A model generated the notes under the pieces. It saw nothing but the letters and a program-made list of their open reading frames with translations, ran no database searches and had not been told where the DNA came from. From Terriglobia bacterium (lineage in GTDB: Bacteria; Acidobacteriota; Terriglobia; Bryobacterales; Bryobacteraceae), in assembly GCA_025363475.1 (NCBI GenBank), contig JANYDS010000068.1, forward strand, positions 1 through 37,746: DNA of 37,746 bases, given 5' to 3'. Position numbers and translations under genes: made by a program. Shown here one piece after another: positions 11,894-26,235 of this stretch (position 1 is its first letter; the number at the start of each line of letters is the position of its first letter).

Positions 11894-11907
11894 GAGGGGT
11901 GAATCGT

Positions 11908-13188
11908 TTGGTCAGTCGTATTTTCGCAGCGCTGGCATTGTTCGCTGTTTCCGTTTTTGCCCAGAATCAGCCACTGACTCTGCATGACGCAATTGAGCGG
12001 TCCCGCCAGTTCGGAACCCAGCTTCAGAGCGCCAGTCTGAACGTCGCCCTGGCGCGTGAAGACCGGGTGCAGGCCCGCGCGGCCACTTTGCCTTCCGTCA
12101 ATGTCCTGAATCAAGTGATTTACACACAGGGCAACGGCACGCCTACCGGAACCTTCGTCACCGCGAACGGGGTCCACTTGTACGACGAACAGGCAGGAGT
12201 TCATCAGGATTTACTGGCTCTGGTGCGGCACGGCGAAATCAACCGTGCCATGGCGGCTGAAGCTGTCGCCCGCGCTCGTGTTGAAGTGGCTGCCCGCGGA
12301 CTCAGGGCCGTGGTGGTGCAGAATTTTTACTCAATCACAACCGCGCAACGCCGGCTGGTCAACGCTCAAACCAGTCTTGACGAAGCAGCCCGGTTTGTTG
12401 ACCTCACGCAGAAACAGGAAGCAGGCGGTGAAGTGGCACGGGCGGATGTCGTGAAAGCCCGCATCACGCTGCAGCAGCGCCAGCGTGATCGCGAGGATGC
12501 TCTGCTCTTAATCGAAAAAGCCAAAATCGCGCTCGGCGTTCTGATCTTCCCCGATCTGCGCTCCGACTTCGCCATTGAGGATGATGTCCGGACTTCCACA
12601 CCGTTCCCGCTCTACCCCGAAGCCGAGAGCAAAGCTACCGTGTCCAGCCCCGATCTGAAAGCGGCTCGCGCAAGCGTGGAACAGGCCGGATATGAGGTAA
12701 AAGTCGCGCGGTATGCCTGGCTCCCCGCGCTCAATGTTGATGTATTTTACGGTCTGGGCAGCAATCAGTTTGCGTTCCGCAATGCGGATGACCAGCGCAA
12801 TCTCGGTTACGCAGGCCAGATCTCACTGAACATACCGGTGTGGAACTGGGGTGCGACCCGCAGCAAAATCAGGCAGGCTGAAATCCGTCGGCATCAGGCG
12901 GAACTCGACCTTACTTTCACGCAACGTGAACTCAAAGGCGCTCTGGCGCTGGCATACAAAGAGGCTCAAGTCGCGCAAGCCCAGCTGGACTCTTTACGGT
13001 CTTCAGCAGAGCTTTCCGCCGAGAGTCTGCGCCTGACCCTGCTTCGCTACCAGGCAGGCGAAGCCACTGCCCTCGAAGTAGTGGATGCACAAAACACGGT
13101 CACGCAGGCGCGCAACGCCTTCGATGACGGCCAAGTCCGCAGCCGGTTGGGCGCGGTGAATCTTCAGTTGCTCACGGGGACTTTCTAA
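11908..13188 (+). CDS. TolC-family outer-membrane efflux channel
   Basis: This is the outer-membrane component of a tripartite pump. Two starts are possible: GTG at 11899 and TTG at 11908. GAGGGG (11894-11899) overlaps the GTG but sits 8 nt before the TTG, so the TTG is preferred, giving 426 residues with a clean signal peptide (MVSRIFAALALFAVSVFAQN). Two TolC repeats follow, each with long coiled-coil helices, for example LTLRYQ-type segments (SLRLTLLRYQAGEATALEVV near the C-terminus, the typical OEP ending with a DAQNTVTQARNAF helix). It is 2 nt upstream of the adaptor gene and part of the regulator-kinase-channel-adaptor-pump operon. Confidence 0.88.
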   Translation: MVSRIFAALALFAVSVFAQNQPLTLHDAIERSRQFGTQLQSASLNVALAREDRVQARAATLPSVNVLNQVIYTQGNGTPTGTFVTANGVHLYDEQAGVHQDLLALVRHGEINRAMAAEAVARARVEVAARGLRAVVVQNFYSITTAQRRLVNAQTSLDEAARFVDLTQKQEAGGEVARADVVKARITLQQRQRDREDALLLIEKAKIALGVLIFPDLRSDFAIEDDVRTSTPFPLYPEAESKATVSSPDLKAARASVEQAGYEVKVARYAWLPALNVDVFYGLGSNQFAFRNADDQRNLGYAGQISLNIPVWNWGATRSKIRQAEIRRHQAELDLTFTQRELKGALALAYKEAQVAQAQLDSLRSSAELSAESLRLTLLRYQAGEATALEVVDAQNTVTQARNAFDDGQVRSRLGAVNLQLLTGTF

Positions 13189-13190
13189 AC

Positions 13191-14459
13191 ATGCTGAAAT
13201 CATCCGCAGTCGCACTCCTGCTGTCCGTCGTGTTTCTCACCGCCTGCGGTAAAGAGAAAGAAAAAGAAGCATCGGCAGGCGATTCCGCTGTCGTGGTGCA
13301 GACAGAAGCTGTTGTTCGCCGCCCCATCAATTTGCTGATTGAAGGCGATGCAGTGTTGTATCCGGTGGGGCAGGCCAGCGTGACTTCAAAGATCAGCGCC
13401 CCCATCCGCAGAATTCTGGTCAATCGCGGCGACCATGTAGCAGTTGGACAGTTGCTCGCTGAACTCGAAAGCCGCGATCTGGAAGCCACTGCGCAGGAAA
13501 CACATAGTCAGTACGATCAAGCCCAGGCATCACTCCAGACCACCACCGGCGCGACGGTTCCAGAGGATCGGGCCAAGGCCGAAGCCGACGTTCAGTCCAC
13601 GCAGCAGGCGCTCGAAGCAGCGAAGAAGGTTTACGAAAACCGCTCACAGCTGCAGAAGGAAGGGGCTCTCGCGCAGAAGCTGGTGGATGACGCCAAGGTT
13701 GCCATGGTGCTGGCACAGAGCCAGTACGATACTGCGCGGTCACACCTGAATGCAGTAAGCCGTGTGACCGGTACCGAACAGGTCAAGGGCGCGCAGGCTC
13801 AGGTGGCCGCGGCCAAAGCACATTACGACAGCGCAGCCGTTCAGGTGGCCTATTCGAAGGTGCTGAGTCCCATCAGCGGGGTGGTTTCTGACCGTCCCCT
13901 CTACCCTGGTGAAATGGCTGCCGCCGGAGCTTCCATCATCTCCATCGTCAACATTTCCCGCGTCGTCGCCCGCGCCAATATTCCCCTGAAACAGATGACG
14001 GCGATCAGGTCCGGCATGCCTGCCACCATTACCGGAGCTGAAGGAATTCTCAATGGCCGCGTCACAGTAGTCAGCCCCGCAGTGGACCCCAGCACCACCA
14101 CCGTGGAAGTGTGGGTGGAAGCGGAGAACCCGGGTGAACGAATGCGGCCCGGTGGCACCGTGCGTGTGGCGATTCGTGCCGATGTGATCCAATCCGCGCT
14201 GGTGATTCCCGCTGCAGCTTTGTTGAGCGCTGATGAAGGCGGTGAAAAAGTTCTCATCATGGGCGCCGATTCGAAAGTGCATTCAAGCAGAGTCAAGGTG
14301 GGCGTGCGTGAGGGTTCAAACGTTCAGATTTTGTCCGGGGCGAATGAGGGAGACAAAGTGGTGGTTTCGGGCGGCCTTGGGCTCGAAGACGGCGCTAAAG
14401 TAACCCTGAACGCGGGCGAGAAAAAGGACGCGGGCGAGAAAGCGGGCGAGAAGGAATGA
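13191..14459 (+). CDS. RND efflux periplasmic adaptor, lipoprotein
   Basis: The 422-residue adaptor (membrane fusion protein) links the RND pump to the TolC-like channel. The N-terminus carries a lipoprotein signal with lipobox LTAC (C19), so it should be anchored by lipid. Then come a lipoyl/barrel-sandwich half (TSKISAPIRRILVNRGDHVA), a long alpha-helical hairpin (about 95-215, rich in Q/A/E), the second lipoyl half with VLSPISGVVSDRPLYPGEMA, a beta-barrel domain and a membrane-proximal domain. The C-terminus is a lysine/glutamate repeat (GEKKDAGEKAGEKE). Its stop overlaps the pump gene by 4 nt. Substrate specificity cannot be read from it. Confidence 0.92.
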   Translation: MLKSSAVALLLSVVFLTACGKEKEKEASAGDSAVVVQTEAVVRRPINLLIEGDAVLYPVGQASVTSKISAPIRRILVNRGDHVAVGQLLAELESRDLEATAQETHSQYDQAQASLQTTTGATVPEDRAKAEADVQSTQQALEAAKKVYENRSQLQKEGALAQKLVDDAKVAMVLAQSQYDTARSHLNAVSRVTGTEQVKGAQAQVAAAKAHYDSAAVQVAYSKVLSPISGVVSDRPLYPGEMAAAGASIISIVNISRVVARANIPLKQMTAIRSGMPATITGAEGILNGRVTVVSPAVDPSTTTVEVWVEAENPGERMRPGGTVRVAIRADVIQSALVIPAAALLSADEGGEKVLIMGADSKVHSSRVKVGVREGSNVQILSGANEGDKVVVSGGLGLEDGAKVTLNAGEKKDAGEKAGEKE

Positions 14460-17400
14460 CCGAACCGGAGCACTGGACAGCCCGCTATTCGCGGCCCATT
14501 ATTTTCCTGGTCATCACGCTGGTTGCGATGGGCGCATACCTCGCGTATACGATCCCTGTAGCGGTTTTCCCTTCAACTGATTTTCCCCGTATCGTTGTTG
14601 GCGTAGATAACGGAGTCGCGCCCATTGATCAGATGCAGGTGACGACCACGCAGCCGATTGAAGAAGCGCTGAATGGTGTTCCGGGTCTGGAATCAGTTCG
14701 CTCCATCACCAGCCGGGGTTCGGCTGAAGTCAATCTGTTTTTTAGCTGGGGCGTCGATATGTTCCGCACGCTGGAATTTGTCAACGCGGCACTGGCACGT
14801 GTTCAGTCATCATTGCCTGCGACGGCCCGGCTCACTTCAAACCGCCTGACATTCGCGGCGTTCCCGATTCGCGGTTACAGTCTGACCTCAGACACCATTC
14901 CGCAGACGAAGCTATGGGAAATCGCTACCTACGGGATCAAGCCACGCCTCAATCGGGTGAACGGCGTTTCCATGATCGTGGTTCAGGGCGGGCAGGTTCC
15001 TGAGTTCCAGATCGAACCCGACCCCGCCAAACTGCTGCAGGCGCAGGTCACAGTCCCCTCGATTCTCGACGCTGTTTCGAAAAACAACATGATCGATTCG
15101 CCCGGCCTGCTGGAGAATAACCATCAGCTGGTTCTGGCTCTGGTGAGCGGCCAGACACGGACGCCCGAAGAGATCGCGAATATCGTCTTGAAGACCACAC
15201 CTGCGGGGATTCCGGTGCGGATTGGAGACGTTGCGACAGTCGGCCCGTCAGTCAAACCGGTTTACACGATTGTGACGGCCAACGGCAAGCCAGCCGTGCT
15301 GCTGAATCTCTTTCGCCAGCCGGACAGCAACACGGTGGCAGTGGCTGATGCTGTTGATCTGGAACTGAGCCAGATCCGCAAGACGCTGCCCGCAGGCGTG
15401 GTGCTGCAGACGTTTTATGACCAGTCCTCGCTCGTCAGAGACTCCATCTCGGCAGTGCGTGATGCCATCCTGATCGGCTTGGTTCTGGCTGCGATTATTC
15501 TGGTGATTTTCCTGCGCGACTGGGGCAGTTCGCTGGTCGCAGGCCTCGTTATTCCCGCGACGATAGCCATCACGATGATCGTGATGCGCATGCTTGGTGA
15601 AAGCTTCAACCTGATGACGCTTGGGGGTCTGGCTGCGGCAGTCGGTCTTGTGATTGACGATGCGATTGTCGTGGTAGAGAACATCGTTCTGCATCGTGAT
15701 TCCGGCCAGAGCCGTTCTGAAGCCATCCGCAGCGCCCTCAATGAAATCCGCGTACCTCTGGTGGGTTCCACCATCACGCCGATTGTGGTGTTCCTTCCGC
15801 TCATCACGATTACAGGTGTAACCGGTACATTCTTCCGCGCCCTCGCGCTCACCGTGGGCACTGCGCTCTTTACGTCGTTGCTGCTTGCACTTACCTGGAC
15901 GCCGGCCCTGAGTACTTATCTGCTGCGCCGCAAACCTGGTGCAAACGCCGGCACTGAGCACAAAGCGACACCGGGAGTTCAACACTATGCCAGGGCCTTG
16001 CGCTTCACCCTGGCGCATCCACTGGCGCTCGCGTTCGGTTGTCTTGTGCTGATCGGCGGCTCGTATTTTTGCTACAACTCACTCGGCAGCGATCTGCTGC
16101 CGGCAATGGACGAAGGCAACTTTATCCTTGACTATTTGACGCCCGCAGGCTCGTCTCTCACAGACACCAATGACATTCTTTTGGGCGTCGAAAAAATCAT
16201 CCTCGCCACGCCTGAAGTGGAAAGTGATTCGCGCCGCACGGGCCTGCAGTTAGGCCTCTCCGGCGTCACCGAAGCCAATCGCGGCGATTTTTCCGTCAAA
16301 CTCAAACGCGACCGTAAACGCCCCATCGATGAAGTAATTTCGGAAGTGCGCGCGAAGGTCAACAAACAATACCCGCAGCTCGACGTCGAATTCATCCAGA
16401 CCTTGCAGGACATGATCGGCGATCTTTCCAACTCGCCCGAGCCCATCGAAATCAAACTCTTCGCCCAGGACTATACACTATTGAAAGACTGGGCTCCGCG
16501 CATCGCCGAACGCATCAAGAAGATTGAAGGCGTTGCCGACGTAAAGAACGGTATCGAGAACACCATCAGCGGCCCTGCGCTGGTAATGACCGTGAACCCT
16601 GCTGTTGCGGCACGTGCGGGCTTTACCGCGCAGGAAGTGGAACTGGACGCCAGCGCTATTTTGCAGGGTGAACCGGCAACGCCGCCGGTGGTTGTCAACG
16701 GGCGCAGCTACGGCATCCGCGTACGCTTTCCTGAGAACACCCGCAGTTCGCTCGAACAGATCCGCAACACCCTCATCACCAGCAGCAGTACGGGCAAAAC
16801 AGCGAGTCTGGGTTCAGTTGCTGCGTTCACTGATGAAGCCGGCCAGACGGAAGTTCGACGTGAAAACCTGCAGCGTTATCTTGCCGTGACGGGGCGGTTT
16901 GAAGGCGTCAGTCTGGGCGAAGGTATGGGCAAAGTGCAGGCTGCCGTCGCGCAGATGAACTTACCGTCGGCGATTCGTATTTCCTATGGCGGCACGTTTG
17001 AAGAACAGCAGAAATCTTTCCGCGACCTGGCCCTGGTGCTGGCGCTGGCCATCGTTCTGGTGTTCATTGTGCTGCTGTTTGAGTTCCGCAATTTCGCTGC
17101 GCCGCTGGCAATTCTTTCCGCCGCGATCCTCTCGACGTCGGGGGTGTTTCTCGCACTGCTGGTTACGAAAACCACTTTCAATATCTCTTCGTTCATGGGT
17201 CTGATTATGGTGATCGGCATTGTGGCGAAGAACGGCATTCTGCTGCTTGATGCGGACCAGCGTTTCCGCGCGGATGGAGCCACTGCACTTGACGCAATGA
17301 TTGAAGCCGGTGAGCGAAGACTGCGCCCCATCCTGATGACCGCACTGGCGACTGTCGCAGGTATGATTCCGTTGTCGCTGGCACTCGGGGCCGGTTCGCA

Positions 17401-17518
17401 GATGCTGCAGCCGCTGGCGATTGCGGTCATCGGCGGAGTGATTGCCTCCATGGTGTTGTCGTTGCTGGTGACGCCGGCGGTTCACTATTACCTGAGCCGC
17501 GGCGATGATCACGCTTGA
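14456..17518 (+). CDS. RND-family inner-membrane efflux pump (AcrB-like)
   Basis: A 1020-residue proton-driven pump with two homologous halves of six membrane helices plus large periplasmic loops. The proton-relay residues known from AcrB are present: the Asp pair D401-D402 in VIDDAIVVVENI (helix 4) and K925 in IVAKNGILLL (helix 10). The start RYSRPIIFLVITLVAMGAYL is the first helix. The intact Asp pair fits the HAE (drug/lipophile) type rather than heavy-metal HME pumps, but the substrate stays unknown. It overlaps the adaptor gene by 4 nt (ATGA). The two-component genes upstream in the same operon suggest inducible expression. Confidence 0.93.
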   Translation: MTEPEHWTARYSRPIIFLVITLVAMGAYLAYTIPVAVFPSTDFPRIVVGVDNGVAPIDQMQVTTTQPIEEALNGVPGLESVRSITSRGSAEVNLFFSWGVDMFRTLEFVNAALARVQSSLPATARLTSNRLTFAAFPIRGYSLTSDTIPQTKLWEIATYGIKPRLNRVNGVSMIVVQGGQVPEFQIEPDPAKLLQAQVTVPSILDAVSKNNMIDSPGLLENNHQLVLALVSGQTRTPEEIANIVLKTTPAGIPVRIGDVATVGPSVKPVYTIVTANGKPAVLLNLFRQPDSNTVAVADAVDLELSQIRKTLPAGVVLQTFYDQSSLVRDSISAVRDAILIGLVLAAIILVIFLRDWGSSLVAGLVIPATIAITMIVMRMLGESFNLMTLGGLAAAVGLVIDDAIVVVENIVLHRDSGQSRSEAIRSALNEIRVPLVGSTITPIVVFLPLITITGVTGTFFRALALTVGTALFTSLLLALTWTPALSTYLLRRKPGANAGTEHKATPGVQHYARALRFTLAHPLALAFGCLVLIGGSYFCYNSLGSDLLPAMDEGNFILDYLTPAGSSLTDTNDILLGVEKIILATPEVESDSRRTGLQLGLSGVTEANRGDFSVKLKRDRKRPIDEVISEVRAKVNKQYPQLDVEFIQTLQDMIGDLSNSPEPIEIKLFAQDYTLLKDWAPRIAERIKKIEGVADVKNGIENTISGPALVMTVNPAVAARAGFTAQEVELDASAILQGEPATPPVVVNGRSYGIRVRFPENTRSSLEQIRNTLITSSSTGKTASLGSVAAFTDEAGQTEVRRENLQRYLAVTGRFEGVSLGEGMGKVQAAVAQMNLPSAIRISYGGTFEEQQKSFRDLALVLALAIVLVFIVLLFEFRNFAAPLAILSAAILSTSGVFLALLVTKTTFNISSFMGLIMVIGIVAKNGILLLDADQRFRADGATALDAMIEAGERRLRPILMTALATVAGMIPLSLALGAGSQMLQPLAIAVIGGVIASMVLSLLVTPAVHYYLSRGDDHA

Positions 17519-17595: not shown

Positions 17596-19785
17596 TTGGA
17601 TCTCCGCAACCGTTTGATTGCCGCCGCATTGTTCCTTGGCAACCTGCTGATTCTCGGCCCGTTTCTGTTGACCGGCTATTCCAGTCAGCCGTGGAATAAC
17701 GGCTATGTCTACATGGCCATCGCGCGCATGTTCCGCGACCATCAGTGGACCTGGAATCCGCTGCAGTATGGGGGCGCGCCATTCCACTATCTCTATCCGC
17801 CTGTGTTTCAGGTTCTGGTCGCGATGGTGCCGTTTGTCTCAATCGGCCATGCCTTCCACATCGTCACTGGCCTCGCGTATGCGATGGTGCCGGTCTGTCT
17901 TTTCTATCTGGCGATGCAGTTGTTTGAGTCACCGCTAATTGCCGGGCTGGCTGCTGTCGCCTACAGCCTTTTCCCTTCGCCCATCTACTATGCTATGCCG
18001 CTGTGGCGAGGTCTGGCGATTCCGTATGCGAACGCGCCGTGGGGCTTCGTGGCAATGGTTGGTTACGAAGAAGCAGCCCACGCTTTCGCCCTGAGCTTTA
18101 CGCTGCTGGCGATCGCGGCCGCGTGGAAAGACCGCTGGACCGTGGCTGCGTTTCTCGCCGCGATTGTTTTTCTCACCAACTGGCCGGCCATGATTGGTCT
18201 CGGTCTGGCTCTGAGCGCAATCGCGGTGCGCCGCCGCATCATGCCACTCATCGGCGCGGTGGGAACTGCTTACGGGCTCGCGGCATTCTGGATCACCCCG
18301 GGTTACTTCGTTTCTTCCACACTGCTCAACCGCATCGTCATCAAAAATACCAGCCCTGGAGAACCGGTCAGCAGTACCACACTTATTATTCTCGTGTGCG
18401 CTGCGGCAGTGATTGGCCTGTCTCTTTGGCGACGCATCCCGGCAGCTATTGCGCTGGTGTTCGCGTGGATCGCTGTGCTAGGCGCAGTAGTAGCGGGCTT
18501 CAGCCTGGCGGGCAACAACCTGGTGCCTATGCCCAACCGCTACATGCTGGAATTCAATGCCGGCTGTATTCTGGCGATTGCGGGACTCGTTTCGCTGATG
18601 CCGCGCGGACGCAAGGTTGTGGCCGGTCTGGTTTGCGCTGCGGGCCTTTATGTTTCTTTCGGGTTCATCACGAAAGCGTGGACGTTTCAGGCTCCGGAGA
18701 CTGACCCGAAGACTGTTCTGACCTGGAAAATTTCGGACTGGCTGAGGCAACATGCGGGTTCGTCACGCGTGCTCGCGTCCGGTGAACTCGACAGCACCCT
18801 CGCGCTCTGGTCTGATGTTCCGCAGATCGGTGGAACCGGGCAGGATGTTTCGAACTTCCTGATGTTCGCGGCGCAAAAACAGGTGGCGTTTGGCTGCGGG
18901 CCAGACTCAGAACAAATCTCGGAGCTTTGGCTGCACGCGCTCAATATTCACTACTTCGTGGTGCATGAAAGCGACTCGCGCGAATACTTCCACTGGTTCT
19001 CTGAGCCGGAGAAATTCCGCGCGCTCCCGGTCGTATGGGACAACCACGCGGGCGACAGAATCTACGAAATCCCGGACGCGAACGAAGCGGTAGTGGTGGA
19101 TTTGCAGGTACTCCGCACACTGCCGCCAATGCGCTCCACCGACGATTCTGTATTTCTCAACGCCTATGTGAAATGGGCCGCAGGCAAACGCGCAGCGTCA
19201 ATCAGATGGACTGGCGACGATGCCATAAATGCTTCCGCCACACTGGGTCCCGATGAAGCTATTCTGCTCAAAGCCACTTATGACCGCGGCTGGCGGACTG
19301 AGCCCGATCCGCTTGGTTTCACGCTGCTTCGCCACAGCGGGCGCTATGAATTCCACTCGTCATGGGACGTCTGGCTGGCACGCGCCATTACGCTGCTCAC
19401 TCTAATTCTATTGGTCGCACGTACTCCCGCCTGGAAGATCGCGGCCGTCGCGGTCATCCCTTCCGCGCTCGCATATTTCTATCTGGCAGCAGCCGTCCCG
19501 CCCACAGCCGCCATCGCAGAACAGGCCTTTGCCCGACTACAACCGCCGCTGATCAATGCGGGCGGTATCGTCAACAATGGCAGCGGGATCATGTCTGTTT
19601 ACGGCCTGAATTTCGGCAATGCTAAAAATATCCCGCACGTATTCGCGGGCGACCGCGAAGGGGAAATCACGTATCACGGCAAGAACCTGATCGTGTTCAA
19701 AGTTCCGCCGGGCAGCGCGGCAAGTTTCCCCGTCAGCGTCGAGGTCAGCGCCTGTCGCGGGAACGCATTTTGGGTTCGTCCTTAA
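17596..19785 (+). CDS. Polytopic GT-C/PTPS-related-like membrane protein with C-terminal IPT-like domain
   Basis: A 729-residue inner-membrane protein starting at a TTG. Roughly 12 hydrophobic helices fill residues 5-380, then a soluble part (about 395-590), a further pair of helices (about 595-640) and a C-terminal beta-rich stretch. The early segment QYGGAPFHYLYPPVFQVLV resembles the first loop of PTPS-related and other GT-C-fold proteins, which transfer sugars from lipid-linked donors. The tail (AGGIVNNGSGIMSVYGLNFG) looks like an IPT/TIG domain as in acidobacterial secreted proteins. The donor and acceptor are unknown, and enzymatic activity is not proven. Its last 41 nt overlap the 3' end of the convergent fusion gene. 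It starts 77 nt after the pump gene and is probably a separate unit. Confidence 0.6.
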   Translation: MDLRNRLIAAALFLGNLLILGPFLLTGYSSQPWNNGYVYMAIARMFRDHQWTWNPLQYGGAPFHYLYPPVFQVLVAMVPFVSIGHAFHIVTGLAYAMVPVCLFYLAMQLFESPLIAGLAAVAYSLFPSPIYYAMPLWRGLAIPYANAPWGFVAMVGYEEAAHAFALSFTLLAIAAAWKDRWTVAAFLAAIVFLTNWPAMIGLGLALSAIAVRRRIMPLIGAVGTAYGLAAFWITPGYFVSSTLLNRIVIKNTSPGEPVSSTTLIILVCAAAVIGLSLWRRIPAAIALVFAWIAVLGAVVAGFSLAGNNLVPMPNRYMLEFNAGCILAIAGLVSLMPRGRKVVAGLVCAAGLYVSFGFITKAWTFQAPETDPKTVLTWKISDWLRQHAGSSRVLASGELDSTLALWSDVPQIGGTGQDVSNFLMFAAQKQVAFGCGPDSEQISELWLHALNIHYFVVHESDSREYFHWFSEPEKFRALPVVWDNHAGDRIYEIPDANEAVVVDLQVLRTLPPMRSTDDSVFLNAYVKWAAGKRAASIRWTGDDAINASATLGPDEAILLKATYDRGWRTEPDPLGFTLLRHSGRYEFHSSWDVWLARAITLLTLILLVARTPAWKIAAVAVIPSALAYFYLAAAVPPTAAIAEQAFARLQPPLINAGGIVNNGSGIMSVYGLNFGNAKNIPHVFAGDREGEITYHGKNLIVFKVPPGSAASFPVSVEVSACRGNAFWVRP

Positions 19786-21475
19786 TCAACTCCTGGCGAT
19801 CCACATATTGGCCCTTCTGCATCACAAAGGAGACAGATTCCAGGGCTTTGATGTCCGCCAGAGGGTTGCCGCTCACGACGAGCAGCGTGGCGTCTTTACC
19901 CTTTGTGACAGAGCCGAAATGCGCATCCTGACCCAGAGCTTTGGCTGCGCCCAGAGTGGCCGCCTGAATGGCTTCGGCGGGCGTGGTCCCGGCCTGCACA
20001 CGAAGCGCGAGTTCATGCTGGATCGCAGGGCCGTGGAAGATCAGGGGCGCTCCCCCGAAGGAACCGATAACACCGGCCATATCAGTTGGCGTGTCGGGTA
20101 CCGCCGCAGCCGGGGGCAGGATGGCCAGCTGAGACCGTGGCGTCACCTGCTGTACCAGGCTTCGCCCCGTAAGTTCGGCGACCTTGGCGGGCGTGGCTCC
20201 AAGTGCTTCCGTGAGGCTGAGTGAGGACTGCGGCACCGGGCCTGTCGTGTAAATATCGGCACCGTACTTCTCGGCTGAATCGACCAGGCCTTTCACCTTC
20301 GCGGTGAGGTCCGGAGGATCGCCAACGCTGCGGACTGCGGTGACGCCACAGAACAGGTAGCTCGCCAGCGCGCGCGTCATCCCTTCCTGCGTAGGGAGGG
20401 GCGTGCTTAGGCGAACACGCATATCGATCAGGCCGGGAAGAAGCGTTTTCCCTGCAGCTTCGACTGGTTCGGCACTCACGCTCTTTGGGTCAGGTCCGGA
20501 GCCTTCGTAAACTTCTTCGATACGACCATTCTTTATCAACACCGAACCGTTCTCAATCACCGTGCCATCGCCCACAATAATTCGCGCATTGCGAATCAGC
20601 CGCGACCGTGATCGCGAGAGATCACGGTCCAGCAGACGCGCCTTGGTGACGTTATCCCGTGAGTAAGTCTGCCATGTGCCCAGTACGAGAAACGGGACGA
20701 GCACCGCGACTAACCATAACTTACCCGCAGGCCTTACCTTCTCTTCTTTTTCCCAGCGGAAGAGTTTCACGCTCAGCAGCAGTCCGATAAAAACCGTCAA
20801 TACCAGCGCACCCACAGACTGCCAGTTGGCAGCTAGCGTCTCATTCCGAATCATGATTCCCTGCAGGCCTGTAACCAGATATGTGGAAGGAATAAACTGT
20901 GTCGCGGTCATCAGCCACGCCGGAAACATAGCGGTCGGAAGCGTGGTTCCGCTCAGAAACAACATCGTCATGTAAACGATCTGTATCAGCACCCCCGCCT
21001 CCGCCATGGAGTTGACAACTGATGACAGAATCAACCCGATGGCACGTATCGCCGCCACGCCCAGCATGATAAAAATAAGGGCCGCCGCCAGATGCTGGGG
21101 CAACTGCATTCCATAGCGGACCTTCGCCAGCGTAAACATCACTACCACCAAAGGGATGTAGACCAAGAGCCCTGTGACGGTTGACGCGACAAGCAGCGGC
21201 AACGGTGAAATCGGGGCCACTTTGAAGCGGCGCAGAATGTTGGTTTCCCGCTCCTGCACAGCCCTCATGCCCGCGCCCAGCAGGCCGTTGCCCAGGATAC
21301 CGAGGACGGTCACCATCGTTACCACCTGGAGAATCGCTCCCCCCTGCTCCGCGTGATATGCCTGCGCAAACATGAAGAAGAACGCGAGCGGCAGCGCGTA
21401 GTTAAAAAAGATCACCACTCGCTGCCGCGAAGCCAGCCTGAGTTCGTTGCGGATCAGCGCCAGATAAGCTTTCAT
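19745..21475 (-). CDS. ABC-2 permease fused to a degenerate amidohydrolase domain
   Basis: The 576-residue product combines two unrelated parts. Residues 1-245 are an ABC-2-type permease: N-terminal amphipathic start, six helices, and the conserved loop QERETNILRRFKVAPISPLP (75-94). A seventh helix (252-270, KLWLVAVLVPFLVLGTWQTY) follows a basic, presumably cytoplasmic stretch, so the rest should face the periplasm. Residues 292-562 match the imidazolonepropionase-like amidohydrolase family: NARIIVGDG, KTLLPGLIDM, YLFCGVTAVRSVGDPPDL, and at the end GTTPAEAIQAATLGAAKALG and GSVTKGKDATLLVVSGNPL. The metal-binding HxH following LPGLIDM is RVR (R353, R355), and the central barrel segment that holds the other ligands seems absent (only about 70 residues between GPVP and IFHGPA). 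It is therefore probably catalytically dead. It overlaps the ABC ATPase gene by 4 nt, so both act as one exporter. Confidence 0.85.
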   Translation of the reverse strand: MKAYLALIRNELRLASRQRVVIFFNYALPLAFFFMFAQAYHAEQGGAILQVVTMVTVLGILGNGLLGAGMRAVQERETNILRRFKVAPISPLPLLVASTVTGLLVYIPLVVVMFTLAKVRYGMQLPQHLAAALIFIMLGVAAIRAIGLILSSVVNSMAEAGVLIQIVYMTMLFLSGTTLPTAMFPAWLMTATQFIPSTYLVTGLQGIMIRNETLAANWQSVGALVLTVFIGLLLSVKLFRWEKEEKVRPAGKLWLVAVLVPFLVLGTWQTYSRDNVTKARLLDRDLSRSRSRLIRNARIIVGDGTVIENGSVLIKNGRIEEVYEGSGPDPKSVSAEPVEAAGKTLLPGLIDMRVRLSTPLPTQEGMTRALASYLFCGVTAVRSVGDPPDLTAKVKGLVDSAEKYGADIYTTGPVPQSSLSLTEALGATPAKVAELTGRSLVQQVTPRSQLAILPPAAAVPDTPTDMAGVIGSFGGAPLIFHGPAIQHELALRVQAGTTPAEAIQAATLGAAKALGQDAHFGSVTKGKDATLLVVSGNPLADIKALESVSFVMQKGQYVDRQELIKDEPKMRSRDRR

Positions 21476-22392
21476 TCGCGGAGCCTCTTGCCTGTCAGTT
21501 CAATAAACACATCTTCCAGCGATGGCCGGCTCAGGTGCACATCATCGAGATCAATCCCATGCCCGTCAAGCCACTTCACAACTTCTACCAGGGTGCGGCC
21601 GGGCTTCGTTGAAGCCACGGTCAAATGCCGACCGTCCCCGGTCAGTTTGGCATGGGTTGCATTCGTCCACTGCGGCAGCGTCAGCTCTGTGAGCGCGCGG
21701 TTGCAGGTGATTTCGATGGTGGAATTGCCTGCACTGCGATCCTGCAATTCGCGCGGCGTCCCAATGGCGATGATCTTCCCCGCATCCACGATCGCCACAC
21801 GGTCACACAGGCGTTCCGCTTCCTCTATGTAGTGCGTCGTGAGCAGAATGGTGCGCTTCTCGCTCTTCAATTCCTCAATCAGAGCGTGAATTTCCAGACG
21901 CACCTGAGGATCAAGTCCCGTTGAGGGTTCATCCAGAAACAACAGCGAAGGATCGTTGATCAGCCCCATCGCAATAGCCAGCCGCTGTTTCTGCCCGCCG
22001 GAAAGCGTGTGATAAAATGCTTCTTTCTTGTCGTAAAGCTGCAGGCGTTTCAGCAGAGAATCCGGGTTAAGCATCCGGCTGTAAAGCGCGCCAAATAATT
22101 CCAGCGCTTCGCCGACGCGTATCTTATCCGGCAGATTCGTCGCCTGCAGGCAGACGCCAATCCGGTCTTTCAGCAGCGTCTTCTGATTATCCGGATCGTA
22201 GCCGAGCACACGCACTTCACCACTGGTGCGCTGGCGAATCCCTTCCAGAATTTCAACCGTAGTGGTTTTGCCCGCGCCATTGGGACCCAGCAGACCAAAT
22301 ACCTCGCCCGCTGCTACCTCGAAATCGATCCCGCGGACTGCTTCCACGCTCCCGTAGCTCTTGTGCAGTCCGCAAACCGAGATGGCGCTCAT
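21472..22392 (-). CDS. ABC transporter ATP-binding protein (DrrA/CcmA type)
   Basis: A 306-residue nucleotide-binding subunit that powers the permease encoded directly downstream. Walker A GPNGAGKTTT (about 36-45), Q-loop region GVCLQATNLPD, signature LSGGQKQRLAIAMGL (about 130-144), Walker B SLLFLDEPSTGLDP, and switch His in LLTTHYIEEAERL are all intact. The C-terminal 80 residues match the regulatory tail of drug-export ATPases of the DrrA type (LSRPSLEDVFIELTGKRL). It begins 6 nt after the thrS stop, so it is co-transcribed with thrS, and overlaps the fusion-permease start by 4 nt. Confidence 0.93.
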   Translation of the reverse strand: MSAISVCGLHKSYGSVEAVRGIDFEVAAGEVFGLLGPNGAGKTTTVEILEGIRQRTSGEVRVLGYDPDNQKTLLKDRIGVCLQATNLPDKIRVGEALELFGALYSRMLNPDSLLKRLQLYDKKEAFYHTLSGGQKQRLAIAMGLINDPSLLFLDEPSTGLDPQVRLEIHALIEELKSEKRTILLTTHYIEEAERLCDRVAIVDAGKIIAIGTPRELQDRSAGNSTIEITCNRALTELTLPQWTNATHAKLTGDGRHLTVASTKPGRTLVEVVKWLDGHGIDLDDVHLSRPSLEDVFIELTGKRLRE

Positions 22393-24627: not shown

Positions 24628-26235
24628 GTGAGCAATGTCTTGAACGAAGAAAAGAAGAAACAGGTCATCGCGCTGGGCCAACTTGGTTGGGCGCTTCGTC
24701 GTATTGAAGAGGCCACCGGTGTCCGCCGGGAGACCGCAGCAGGGTATTTAAAGGCCGCAGGCATCCCGGTGCGGCAACCAGGCGGCTGGGGTCGGCGGAA
24801 AACACCGGCACTTTCAAAACCGGCCAATGAGGTGACCACCGACCCTGAGGCGTCAAAACCGGCCAATGGGAAGAAGCTGACCACCGACTCTGGCGATCCG
24901 AAACCGTCGCCAGGTCTAAATGCCAGCACCAGCGAACCATACAGCGAACTCATCGCCCGAGCGCTGTCGCTCGGGCGCAACGCCACGTCTGTCTGGCAAG
25001 AACTGGTGGACAGGTATGGCTTCACCGGCTCCTATGAGAGCGTCAAACGCTACGCCCGCAAACTACGCGGCACTCAATCGCCTGAAGCGTGCGGCATCAT
25101 CGAGACAGCCCCGGGCGAAGAGTCGCAGGTCGATTACGGAACCGGCCCCATGGTCCGCGATGCGCAAACCGGCAAGTACCGGCGCACGCGTCTTTTCGTG
25201 CTGACGCTCGGCTTCAGCCGCAAGTGCGTCCGGCTTCTCCGCCTCCATTCCAGCACCCGCATCTGGGCCGAACTGCACGAGCAGGCCTTCCGCCGACTGG
25301 GCGGCGTCACCAGATTCGTCATCCCCGACAACCTGAAAGAAGGCGTGCTCAAGCCCGACATTTACGACCCGGTTTTGAATCCGCTCGATCGCGATGTACT
25401 GGCCCACTATGGTGCTGTAGCCATGCCGTGCCGCATGCGGCATCCCGACCGGAAGGGCAAAGTGGAATCCGGCGTCGGCCACGCACAGAGGACGCCGCTG
25501 AAAGGGCAGCGCTTCGAGAGCCTGGAAGCCGCTTACGATGTATCTCGACCGCTGGGAAGAACGCTGGGCCGATACGCGCATCCACGGCACCACCAAACGT
25601 CAGGTCTCGGCCATGTTCGCCGAAGAGAGACCTTCGCTCAAGCCACTGCCGCTGGAGCCGTTTCGCTATTACCAGTACGGCGAACGCACGGTGCATCTGG
25701 ATGGATGCATCGAGGTGGAAGCCGCTTACTACAGTGCCCCGCCGGGCTGGATTACCCGCATTGTGCACGTCCAGTGGGATGGTCTGCACGTTCGTCTGCT
25801 CGATCCGCGTACAGGGCAACTGCTGCGTGAGCATCTGCGTCAGGCGCGCGGACGCCGCCGCATCGAAGATGCCGACCGTGCGAAGCGCACACCACTGGGC
25901 ACCGTGCAACTGCTCGAACGGGCCGCGAGGTCCGGACCGCATATCGGCCAGTTCACCAAAACCCTTTATGAACTAAAGGCCGAAGCCTCAGTACGCCGCA
26001 TTCCGGGCATTCTGTCCTTTGGCAAAAATACGGTGTGGCGCGCGTCGACGATGCCTGTGCCGCCGCGCTGGAACTCGAAGTTTACGACTACGGCTTCGTG
26101 CGCCGCTATCTCGAACGCAAATCGCAGCCGCCCATCAGTCTGCGGCAAGTCGATCCCCTGATCCGCCAACTCAATCTTTACCGCGATCTCATCGAACAAC
26201 GTACTCAGCAAGACAACCAGGAGCCCCCTCAATGA
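24628..26235 (+). pseudogene. istA: IS21 transposase IstA, interrupted by two frameshifts
   Basis: IstA is the DDE transposase of IS21 elements. The reading frame begins at a GTG (24628) with a helix-turn-helix (about 10-48), then a linker with two SKPAN repeats (63-67, 76-80), and the DDE core: D169 in SQVDYG, D234 in IPDNLKEG, E280 in KGKVESG. At about 25528-25540 (near SLEAAYDV) the frame must shift +1 to continue as YLDRWEERWADTRIHGTTKR. At a run of five A's (26024-26028) it must shift -1 to continue as KKYGVARVDDACAAALELEV and reach the stop at 26235, which overlaps istB. The A-run shift could be slippage or a one-base deletion; the first has no such explanation. Probably inactive unless the assembly is wrong. 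Confidence 0.85.
24816..24868 (+). repeat. Copies of the IS21 end repeat inside istA
   Basis: AAAACCGGCCAATG, the motif repeated in both element ends, occurs twice more inside the istA coding sequence (24816-24829 and 24855-24868), in the same direction as the left-end copies and followed by GGTGACCACC- or CTGACCACC-like sequence. In the protein they encode the SKPAN repeats in the linker between the helix-turn-helix and the DDE core. Confidence 0.9.

What the first reader, a model, noticed from the sequence alone, without database searches (positions are those of the whole stretch)
19745..21475. ABC-2 permease fused to an amidohydrolase domain that has lost its metal-binding HxH
Seen: one uninterrupted 576-codon frame joins a six-helix ABC-2 permease, a seventh helix (252-270) and an amidohydrolase-like domain (292-562). 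The conserved HxH after LPGLIDM reads RVR (R353, R355; codons at 20417-20419 and 20411-20413), each one A-to-G change from His, and the barrel middle is about 100 residues too short. Known: in the imidazolonepropionase-like family HxH is a metal ligand. Inference: the extra helix places the domain in the periplasm as a pseudo-enzyme, perhaps to bind or hand over the exported substrate or to control the pump.
Basis: partly seen in the sequence, partly recalled or inferred. Interest (0 to 1): 0.75.

Follow-up and report, generated by a model that had tools for sequence, protein, structure and literature searches.

The report
Exporter fused to a gutted enzyme
A bacterial export pump carries, as one protein, the shell of an amide-cutting enzyme whose metal site and barrel core are gone, and relatives show that much the same gutting happened many times while the shell was kept.

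Summary
One 576-codon frame (19745-21475, minus) joins a DrrB-like ABC-2 permease, a seventh helix and an amidohydrolase-like domain with RVR for HxH; it overlaps its ATPase gene by ATGA. Most relatives are ~732-residue fusions with six metal ligands (HxH, Lys, His, His, Asp) and a full Xaa-Pro-dipeptidase-type barrel. In 137 family genomes scored, 81 copies are intact, 17 full-length with a ligand replaced, 37 "hollow" like this one, and 2 lack the domain. A permease tree rejects one origin of the hollow form (p-AU 1.6e-37) and needs 12 changes, at least 7 forced. Largely the same piece (beta3-beta7) goes; beta-sandwich and C-terminal shell stay. In 17 of 17 close hollow pairs the shell is under purifying selection (dN/dS 0.05-0.26), so the hollow form is a retained pseudo-enzyme, not an assembly error. 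The window's own domain evolves about three times faster than its permease and has no near relative, so early decay is not excluded for this copy. Most likely the shell caps or gates the exporter's outer face (inferred). Our literature searches listed no description of it.

The parts
21472..22392 (-). DrrA-like ABC ATPase, 306 aa, presumed partner of the exporter; its stop overlaps the permease start (ATGA, 21472-21475)
   Evidence: Pfam ABC_tran 100 bits, NCBIfam TIGR01188 drrA 267.8 bits, below its cut-off 312.45; ATPase within 400 nt upstream on the same strand in 169 of 175 distinct homologues; 4 lack upstream sequence, one lies at 447 nt, one has none found
19745..21475 (-). Whole fusion gene, 576 aa: ABC-2 permease + TM7 + hollow amidohydrolase domain
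20744..21475 (-). Six-helix ABC-2 permease core (residues 1-244)
   Evidence: Pfam; AF2 helices 2-17, 19-39, 47-77, 92-121, 129-153, 157-174, 186-192, 196-209, 218-244
20660..20731 (-). Seventh transmembrane helix (AF2 249-272), preceded by FRWEKEEK, invariant in the 60 rows of alignment A1
   Evidence: hydropathy peak 1.76
20609..20656 (-). Basic helix after TM7 (residues 274-289)
   Evidence: net charge +3.1 on average for residues 271-291 across the family
20408..20602 (-). Retained beta-sandwich start and first barrel strand (residues 292-356)
   Evidence: occupancy 0.97-1.00 in 38 hollow rows; strands in AF2 model
20411..20419 (-). R353-V-R355 in place of the HxH metal ligands
20231..20236 (-). 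Excision junction (residues 414/415): beta3-beta7 of the barrel missing, with its Lys, His and His ligands
   Evidence: alignment to L009/L039
20057..20059 (-). F473 in place of the beta8 Asp ligand (GSDAGN becomes GSFGGA)
19775..20053 (-). Retained C-terminal shell (residues 475-567), incl. the HGP..E..L..V.AG and GNPLxDI stretches
   Evidence: occupancy 0.96-1.00 in 38 hollow rows; Pfam Amidohydro_1 486-557
19748..19774 (-). C-terminal extension (568-576) beyond where many relatives end; runs into the end of the convergent gene 17596-19785

Best explanation
This is the membrane subunit of a DrrAB-like ABC-2 exporter with a retained pseudo-enzyme domain on its outer (periplasmic) face. Shown by comparison: the parent form is an exporter fused through a seventh helix to a complete amidohydrolase of the COG1228 Xaa-Pro dipeptidase / ochratoxinase kind with six metal ligands; in this lineage, and in several others independently, the ligands were lost and most of the beta3-beta7 part of the barrel was removed, while the beta-sandwich, first strands and C-terminal shell were kept in frame. 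Inferred: the intact form cuts an amide in a compound as it leaves, or in a threat waiting outside; the shell also has a structural job, as a cap or dimer clamp over the exit of the homodimeric permease that stabilises or gates it, and that job alone is kept in hollow copies.
For: Intact parent state: 109 of 175 distinct homologues carry HHKHHD; the L039 model matches 2qs8 well (TM over the target 0.85, E 8.4e-27), the window model only in part (0.49, 7.3 A). The six ligands are those described for the superfamily (PMC11342369, passages). Repeated loss: 23 hollow rows (of 38) against 32 intact (of 115), my choice, reject a single hollow clade, p-AU 1.6e-37; on 173 rows hollow needs 12 changes, at least 7 forced. 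Similar excision: over 38 hollow rows beta3-beta7 is occupied at 0.16 on average (range 0.02-0.68), sandwich, b8/a8 and C-term at 1.00. Retention: 17 of 17 close hollow pairs have domain dN/dS 0.053-0.264, median 0.174 (75 intact pairs, median 0.103). Only hollow copies in 10 of 47 genera, e.g. g59 8 of 8 scored, g56 5 of 5, g12 4 of 4, including genomes of 1-3 contigs (G139, G182, G183, G140). Outside location. ATPase partner.
Against: Cap, clamp or gate is inference; no contact or dimer was modelled. The hollow domain is less constrained than the intact one (domain/permease dN ratio, median 3.33 against 1.54). For the window copy the domain branch is 0.92 against 0.31 for the permease (ratio 2.95). 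Of 13 intact genus relatives 8 lie at 0.8-1.5; the other 5 (0, 2.3, 3.2, 4.7, 4.9) have permease branches of 0.043 or less. No close relative shows renewed constraint. G002 of the same genus and G068 have lost the domain, so it can be dispensable. Basic residues after TM7 go against the simple positive-inside expectation.
Confidence: 0.5

Rival explanations
1. Stepwise decay: once the hydrolase is no longer needed, the domain loses ligands, then its core, then everything, and hollow forms are intermediate stages with at most a folding role.
For: All stages exist: of 137 genomes 17 are full-length with at least one ligand replaced, 37 hollow, 2 without domain; G002 ends right after TM7; the window's domain branch is 2.95 times its permease branch; second-codon-position change is 0.20 in the window's domain against 0.048 in its permease, while the domains of four full-length genus relatives tested show 0.055-0.086.
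Against: Purifying selection in 17 of 17 close hollow pairs; only hollow copies in 10 genera; no stop in 278 codons where a crude simulation at the observed substitution rates expects 4.8-7.6 (P 0.0065-0.001); retention of the same shell in independent lineages.
Confidence: 0.3
2. The hollow domain is a binding or hand-over module: the emptied barrel mouth binds the exported compound or a partner protein and passes it on.
For: Likely placement at the exporter's outer face and a conserved HGP..E..L..V.AG stretch, with H646, G647, P648, L656 and G661 (L009 numbering) kept at 0.87-1.00 in hollow rows.
Against: Much of what would line the pocket (beta3-beta7) is what was removed; no hollow-specific motif was found, only three columns change a strong consensus. 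The conserved stretch is just as conserved in intact fusions, so the fold alone may explain it.
Confidence: 0.15
3. Assembly or frameshift artefact that deleted the middle of a normal enzyme.
For: The window genome is a draft (96 contigs); intact homologues exist.
Against: The deletion is in frame, ligands outside it (H353, H355, D638) are also substituted, and independent hollow copies occur in other genomes, some of one contig.
Confidence: 0.02

Closest known systems
COG1228 Xaa-Pro dipeptidase / Cc2672 carboxypeptidase / ochratoxinase group of the amidohydrolase superfamily (PDB 2qs8, 3mtw, 4c5y; NCBIfam NF051886)
   Same: Sequence and fold of beta-sandwich, first strands and C-terminal helices; most full-length sister fusions keep all six metal ligands
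   Different: Fused behind an ABC-2 permease and TM7; in the window no ligand and no complete barrel; far below NF051886's cut-off (98.2 against 500 bits)
DrrAB-type ABC-2 exporters (TIGR01188, TIGR00025/TIGR01247)
   Same: Adjacent ATPase and six-helix permease
   Different: Seventh helix and extra domain; ATPase (267.8 against 312.45) and permease (39.1 against 146.9 for TIGR00025) score below the curated cut-offs
Pseudo-dihydroorotase (pDHO) of Pseudomonas aeruginosa aspartate transcarbamoylase (PMC7053772, start of abstract seen in a search listing)
   Same: Inactive amidohydrolase-superfamily chain that is necessary for the activity of its partner
   Different: A separate 45-kDa chain in a soluble complex, not fused to a transporter and, as recalled, not gutted

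Membership tests
ABC-2 exporter membrane subunit | ABC2_membrane domain above curated cut-off | tested here: met
   66.9 and 69.4 bits against 26.9 and 31.6
ABC-2 exporter membrane subunit | Adjacent ATPase with nucleotide-binding motifs | tested here: met
   ABC_tran 100 bits; GPNGAGKTT, LSGGQ, LLFLDEP read in the translation (motif roles recalled); ATPase upstream in 169 of 175
ABC-2 exporter membrane subunit | Transports a substrate outward | not testable with these tools
   needs an assay
Amidohydrolase superfamily enzyme (binuclear, subtype I) | HxH on beta1 | tested here: not met
   RVR
Amidohydrolase superfamily enzyme (binuclear, subtype I) | Lys on beta4, His on beta5, His on beta6 | tested here: not met
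   segment deleted
Amidohydrolase superfamily enzyme (binuclear, subtype I) | Asp on beta8 | tested here: not met
   F473
Amidohydrolase superfamily enzyme (binuclear, subtype I) | Complete (beta/alpha)8 barrel | tested here: not met
   About three barrel strands left in the AF2 model; TM over 2qs8 0.49 against 0.85 for the full-length sister
Amidohydrolase superfamily by descent | Significant sequence relation and beta-sandwich | tested here: met
   Amidohydro_1 48.2 bits, cut-off 25; sandwich kept; 63% identity to the L039 domain over its residues 1-138
Retained pseudo-enzyme | Catalytic residues lost but sequence under purifying selection (hollow relatives) | tested here: met
   17 of 17 close pairs dN/dS 0.053-0.264; pairs not independent, simple Nei-Gojobori counts
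Retained pseudo-enzyme | The same for the window's own copy | tested here: inconclusive
   open frame, but faster domain branch and no close relative
Retained pseudo-enzyme | A non-catalytic function | not testable with these tools
   needs deletion and assay

The most novel reading that the evidence does not exclude
A recurrent evolutionary path turns an enzyme-exporter fusion into a new, smaller exporter domain: a TIM barrel with most of its beta3-beta7 part cut out folds as a stable hollow shell that clamps or gates the exit of an ABC-2 exporter, reached independently by many lineages of one bacterial family.
Probability: 0.4. Interest if true: 0.75.

Novelty: new variant of a known kind. 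Interest (0 to 1): 0.6.

Why it matters
As I recall, pseudo-enzymes usually keep their whole fold and TIM barrels are thought hard to cut. Here one bacterial family offers a natural series (intact, ligand-broken, hollow, gone) with repeated independent replicas and the attached permease as a built-in control. That makes testable what a dead enzyme domain does for a transporter and how a barrel can be halved and still be kept. It also points to a class of exporters that carry an outward-facing amide hydrolase of unknown substrate, for which my searches listed no paper.

Tried and rejected
Assembly error or frameshift as the cause: rejected (independent hollow copies, some in genomes of one contig). 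One inherited hollow clade: rejected. One shared hollowing for the window copy and the second hollow copy of the genus, L021/L038: not rejected (p-AU 0.071), so these two may or may not be independent. Imidazolonepropionase as the parent: the COG1228 dipeptidase/ochratoxinase group fits better. Substrate from neighbours: in up to 101 loci compared (some of them duplicates), beyond the ATPase the commonest same-strand neighbours recur in 16, 14 and 12 loci; representatives are DJ-1/PfpI, Lnt and phosphoglucomutase, which point to no substrate. In one search the longest-ORF rule sometimes chose antisense frames, so ATPase counts come. Charge rule for topology: indecisive. A phylum draw with a strict cut found 2 of 396, one being the window's own genome; the draw holds few family members and says little about breadth. 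The genome-contig scan kept the best 80 of 146 relatives.

Rows dropped before counts: of 181 distinct proteins, L006, L035, L036, L037 (not this fusion), L015/L045 (frame split in two; HxH kept) and L185 (fragment, stop inside) were left out, giving 175; two more (L239, L240) with under 200 permease residues were left out of the 173-row tree. One search scores 137 genomes, all of family f1; G001 and G170 are absent for the reasons above. Rows cut by a contig end count as intact if all ligands present are kept. 'Hollow' includes borderline rows (L055, L105, L240) that lost only part of the core. 'Full-length with a ligand replaced' includes single replacements (4 of 18 rows) that need not kill the enzyme. 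Close pairs: permease dN <= 0.12, permease dS <= 1.5, domain dS <= 2; others not counted. One search printed earlier pair lists in which distant pairs show odd low dS (saturation or codon bias); these are not used.

Literature: 10 searches, of which seven were aimed at the fusion and three at ligands or pseudo-dihydroorotase. No title or abstract start listed points to an ABC-2/amidohydrolase fusion, but papers listed were not opened, and only open-licence PMC papers were searched. One paper was looked into (PMC11342369, passages).
Full report
What is there. On the minus strand, 19745-21475 encodes one open frame of 576 codons; its ATG overlaps the stop of the ATPase gene 21472-22392 by ATGA. 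Pfam places ABC-2 membrane domains at 4-236 and the end of Amidohydro_1 at 486-557. The predicted structure (pLDDT 89.1, pTM 0.84, from a 60-row alignment that also holds full-length relatives) shows the permease helices, a further helix at 249-272, a basic helix at 274-289, a beta-sandwich from 292 and, by my reading of the strand list, only about three barrel strands (349-354, 378-383, 407-409). It is the only copy of the fusion found in its genome, a 4.16-Mb draft of 96 contigs; the window is contig C25.

What it came from. In the same genus 18 of 19 genomes, the window's own included, have a homologue at E <= 1e-60, in a family draw 132 of 200; two of these, G002 and G068, lack the domain. 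The 80 named loci kept (of 146 found) are mostly Bryobacterales and other Acidobacteriota, plus Chthoniobacterales/Spartobacteria. Most homologues are about 732 residues long. Six ligand columns, H353 H355 K476 H513 H533 D638 in L009/L039 numbering, align with like residues of 2qs8 and agree with the superfamily description: HxH and Asp for one metal, two His for the other, a bridging carboxylated Lys (PMC11342369, passages read). Of 175 distinct homologues 109 keep all six. A model of the full-length L039 (pLDDT 89.5, pTM 0.87) matches 2qs8 with TM 0.85 over the target; the window model reaches 0.49. So the parent is a complete fused metallohydrolase, and the window copy is a derived, gutted one.

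How often it happened. In 137 family genomes that could be scored, 81 copies are intact, 17 are full-length with at least one ligand replaced, 37 are hollow and 2 lack the domain. Of 47 genera 22 have only intact copies, 10 only hollow, 6 are mixed; the other 9 have only ligand-broken or domain-less copies. On a permease-only tree of 173 rows, hollow needs 12 changes (at least 7 forced by starred branches) and intactness 23 (at least 13); a first tree of 88 rows gave 9 and 6 for HxH alone. Holding 23 hollow rows (of 38, chosen by me) as one clade against 32 intact rows costs 504 log units (p-AU 1.6e-37). Whether the window and L021/L038, the other hollow copy of its genus, are one event is open (p-AU 0.071). 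Order of events varies: genus g81 lost the core but kept HxH (HH---G in 3 of 3), while g82 keeps a nearly full-length barrel (713 aa) with five of six ligands replaced (QFKMSG, 3 of 3).

What is removed and kept. Over 38 hollow rows the segment 426-558 (beta3-beta7) is occupied at 0.16 on average, range 0.02-0.68 (window 0.03), whereas the sandwich plus beta1, the beta8/alpha8 region and the C-terminus are at 1.00. Eight columns fixed in intact rows fall to 0.5 or less in hollow ones: H353, H355, S392, G394, G421, G636, D638, N641. Of 281 retained domain columns 61 stay at 0.85 or more.

Is it maintained? Close hollow pairs (permease dN <= 0.12): 17 pairs, domain dN/dS 0.053-0.264, median 0.174; 75 intact pairs have median 0.103 and 6 ligand-broken pairs 0.095 (simple Nei-Gojobori counts, pairs not independent). 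So hollow domains are constrained, though less than intact ones (domain/permease dN ratio 3.33 against 1.54). For the window copy there is no near relative. Its domain branch is 2.95 times its permease branch (L021: 2.56); of 13 intact genus relatives 8 lie at 0.8-1.5 and the other 5, with permease branches of 0.043 or less, scatter from 0 to 4.9. Second-position change is 0.048 in its permease and 0.20 in its domain, against 0.055-0.086 in the domains of four full-length genus relatives. The frame has no stop over 278 retained codons, where a crude unconstrained simulation expects 4.8-7.6 (P 0.0065-0.001). I read this as relaxed and changed constraint, with decay not excluded for this one copy.

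Where it sits. ABC-2 permeases end in the cytoplasm after helix 6 (established knowledge, recalled), so a true TM7 puts the domain outside. TM7 is hydrophobic across the family (174 rows, peak median 1.71, lowest 1.09) and follows FRWEKEEK, invariant in the 60 rows of A1. Stand-alone homologues start with signal-peptide-like or lipobox-like N-termini in 12 of 12 read by eye; a contig-end fragment, L005, could not be judged. A distant fusion in G604 adds a CIA30/CBM11-like domain after the amidohydrolase. Against: the stretch after TM7 is as basic as the one before.

How it most likely works. Shown: a conserved two-gene unit (ATPase within 400 nt upstream in 169 of 175; 4 lack sequence; L240 at 447 nt; L238 none found), a parent with a complete ligand set, recurrent hollowing, and constraint in close hollow pairs. 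Inferred: because the two permease subunits of an ABC-2 exporter dimerise (recalled), their two shells meet over the exit and stabilise or gate it; this part stays useful after catalysis is lost. A precedent for an inactive amidohydrolase-type chain needed by its partner is the pDHO of Pseudomonas aeruginosa (PMC7053772, start of abstract in a search listing). The strongest rival is stepwise decay, since every stage down to complete loss (G002, G068) exists.

Novelty. Seven searches of open PMC papers aimed at such a fusion listed nothing whose title or abstract start describes one; the listed papers were not opened. ABC-2 exporters and pseudo-enzymes are known kinds; the fusion with repeated gutting of the barrel is, as far as I could see, a new variant.

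Noticed in passing
L192, L195, L198 (genus g82): Fusions of 713 aa in which five of six metal ligands are replaced (QFKMSG) yet domain dN/dS is 0.06-0.09 in the three pairs: a near-complete-fold pseudo-enzyme under strong constraint.
   Followed up: partly
L034/L143 (G002) and L144 (G068): Same exporter ending just after TM7 (G002), or TM7 followed by a short unrelated tail (G068): the domain is lost but the seventh helix is kept.
   Followed up: partly
L259 (G604, same phylum, other family), 3-2669 -: 889-residue frame with ABC-2 permease, amidohydrolase and CIA30/CBM11-like C-terminal domain, a three-part fusion.
   Followed up: partly
window 17596-19785 +: Convergent gene for a 729-aa protein (hydrophobic stretches seen in the translation) with a C-terminal TIG/IPT domain; its end overlaps the end of the fusion gene by 41 bp.
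   Followed up: partly
window 24628-25830 +: Weak integrase-core (rve) match, below Pfam's cut-off, beside thrS.
   Followed up: no
window 11899-17518 +: AcrB-type RND efflux gene (14456-17518) preceded by two genes of a size fitting an adaptor and an outer-membrane partner; the RND gene and the one before it recur near the exporter in 5 and 6 loci, the window included.
   Followed up: no
L015/L045 (G001): Fusion whose frame is split into two overlapping frames (472 + 314 aa) while HxH is kept: frameshift or sequencing error.
   Followed up: no
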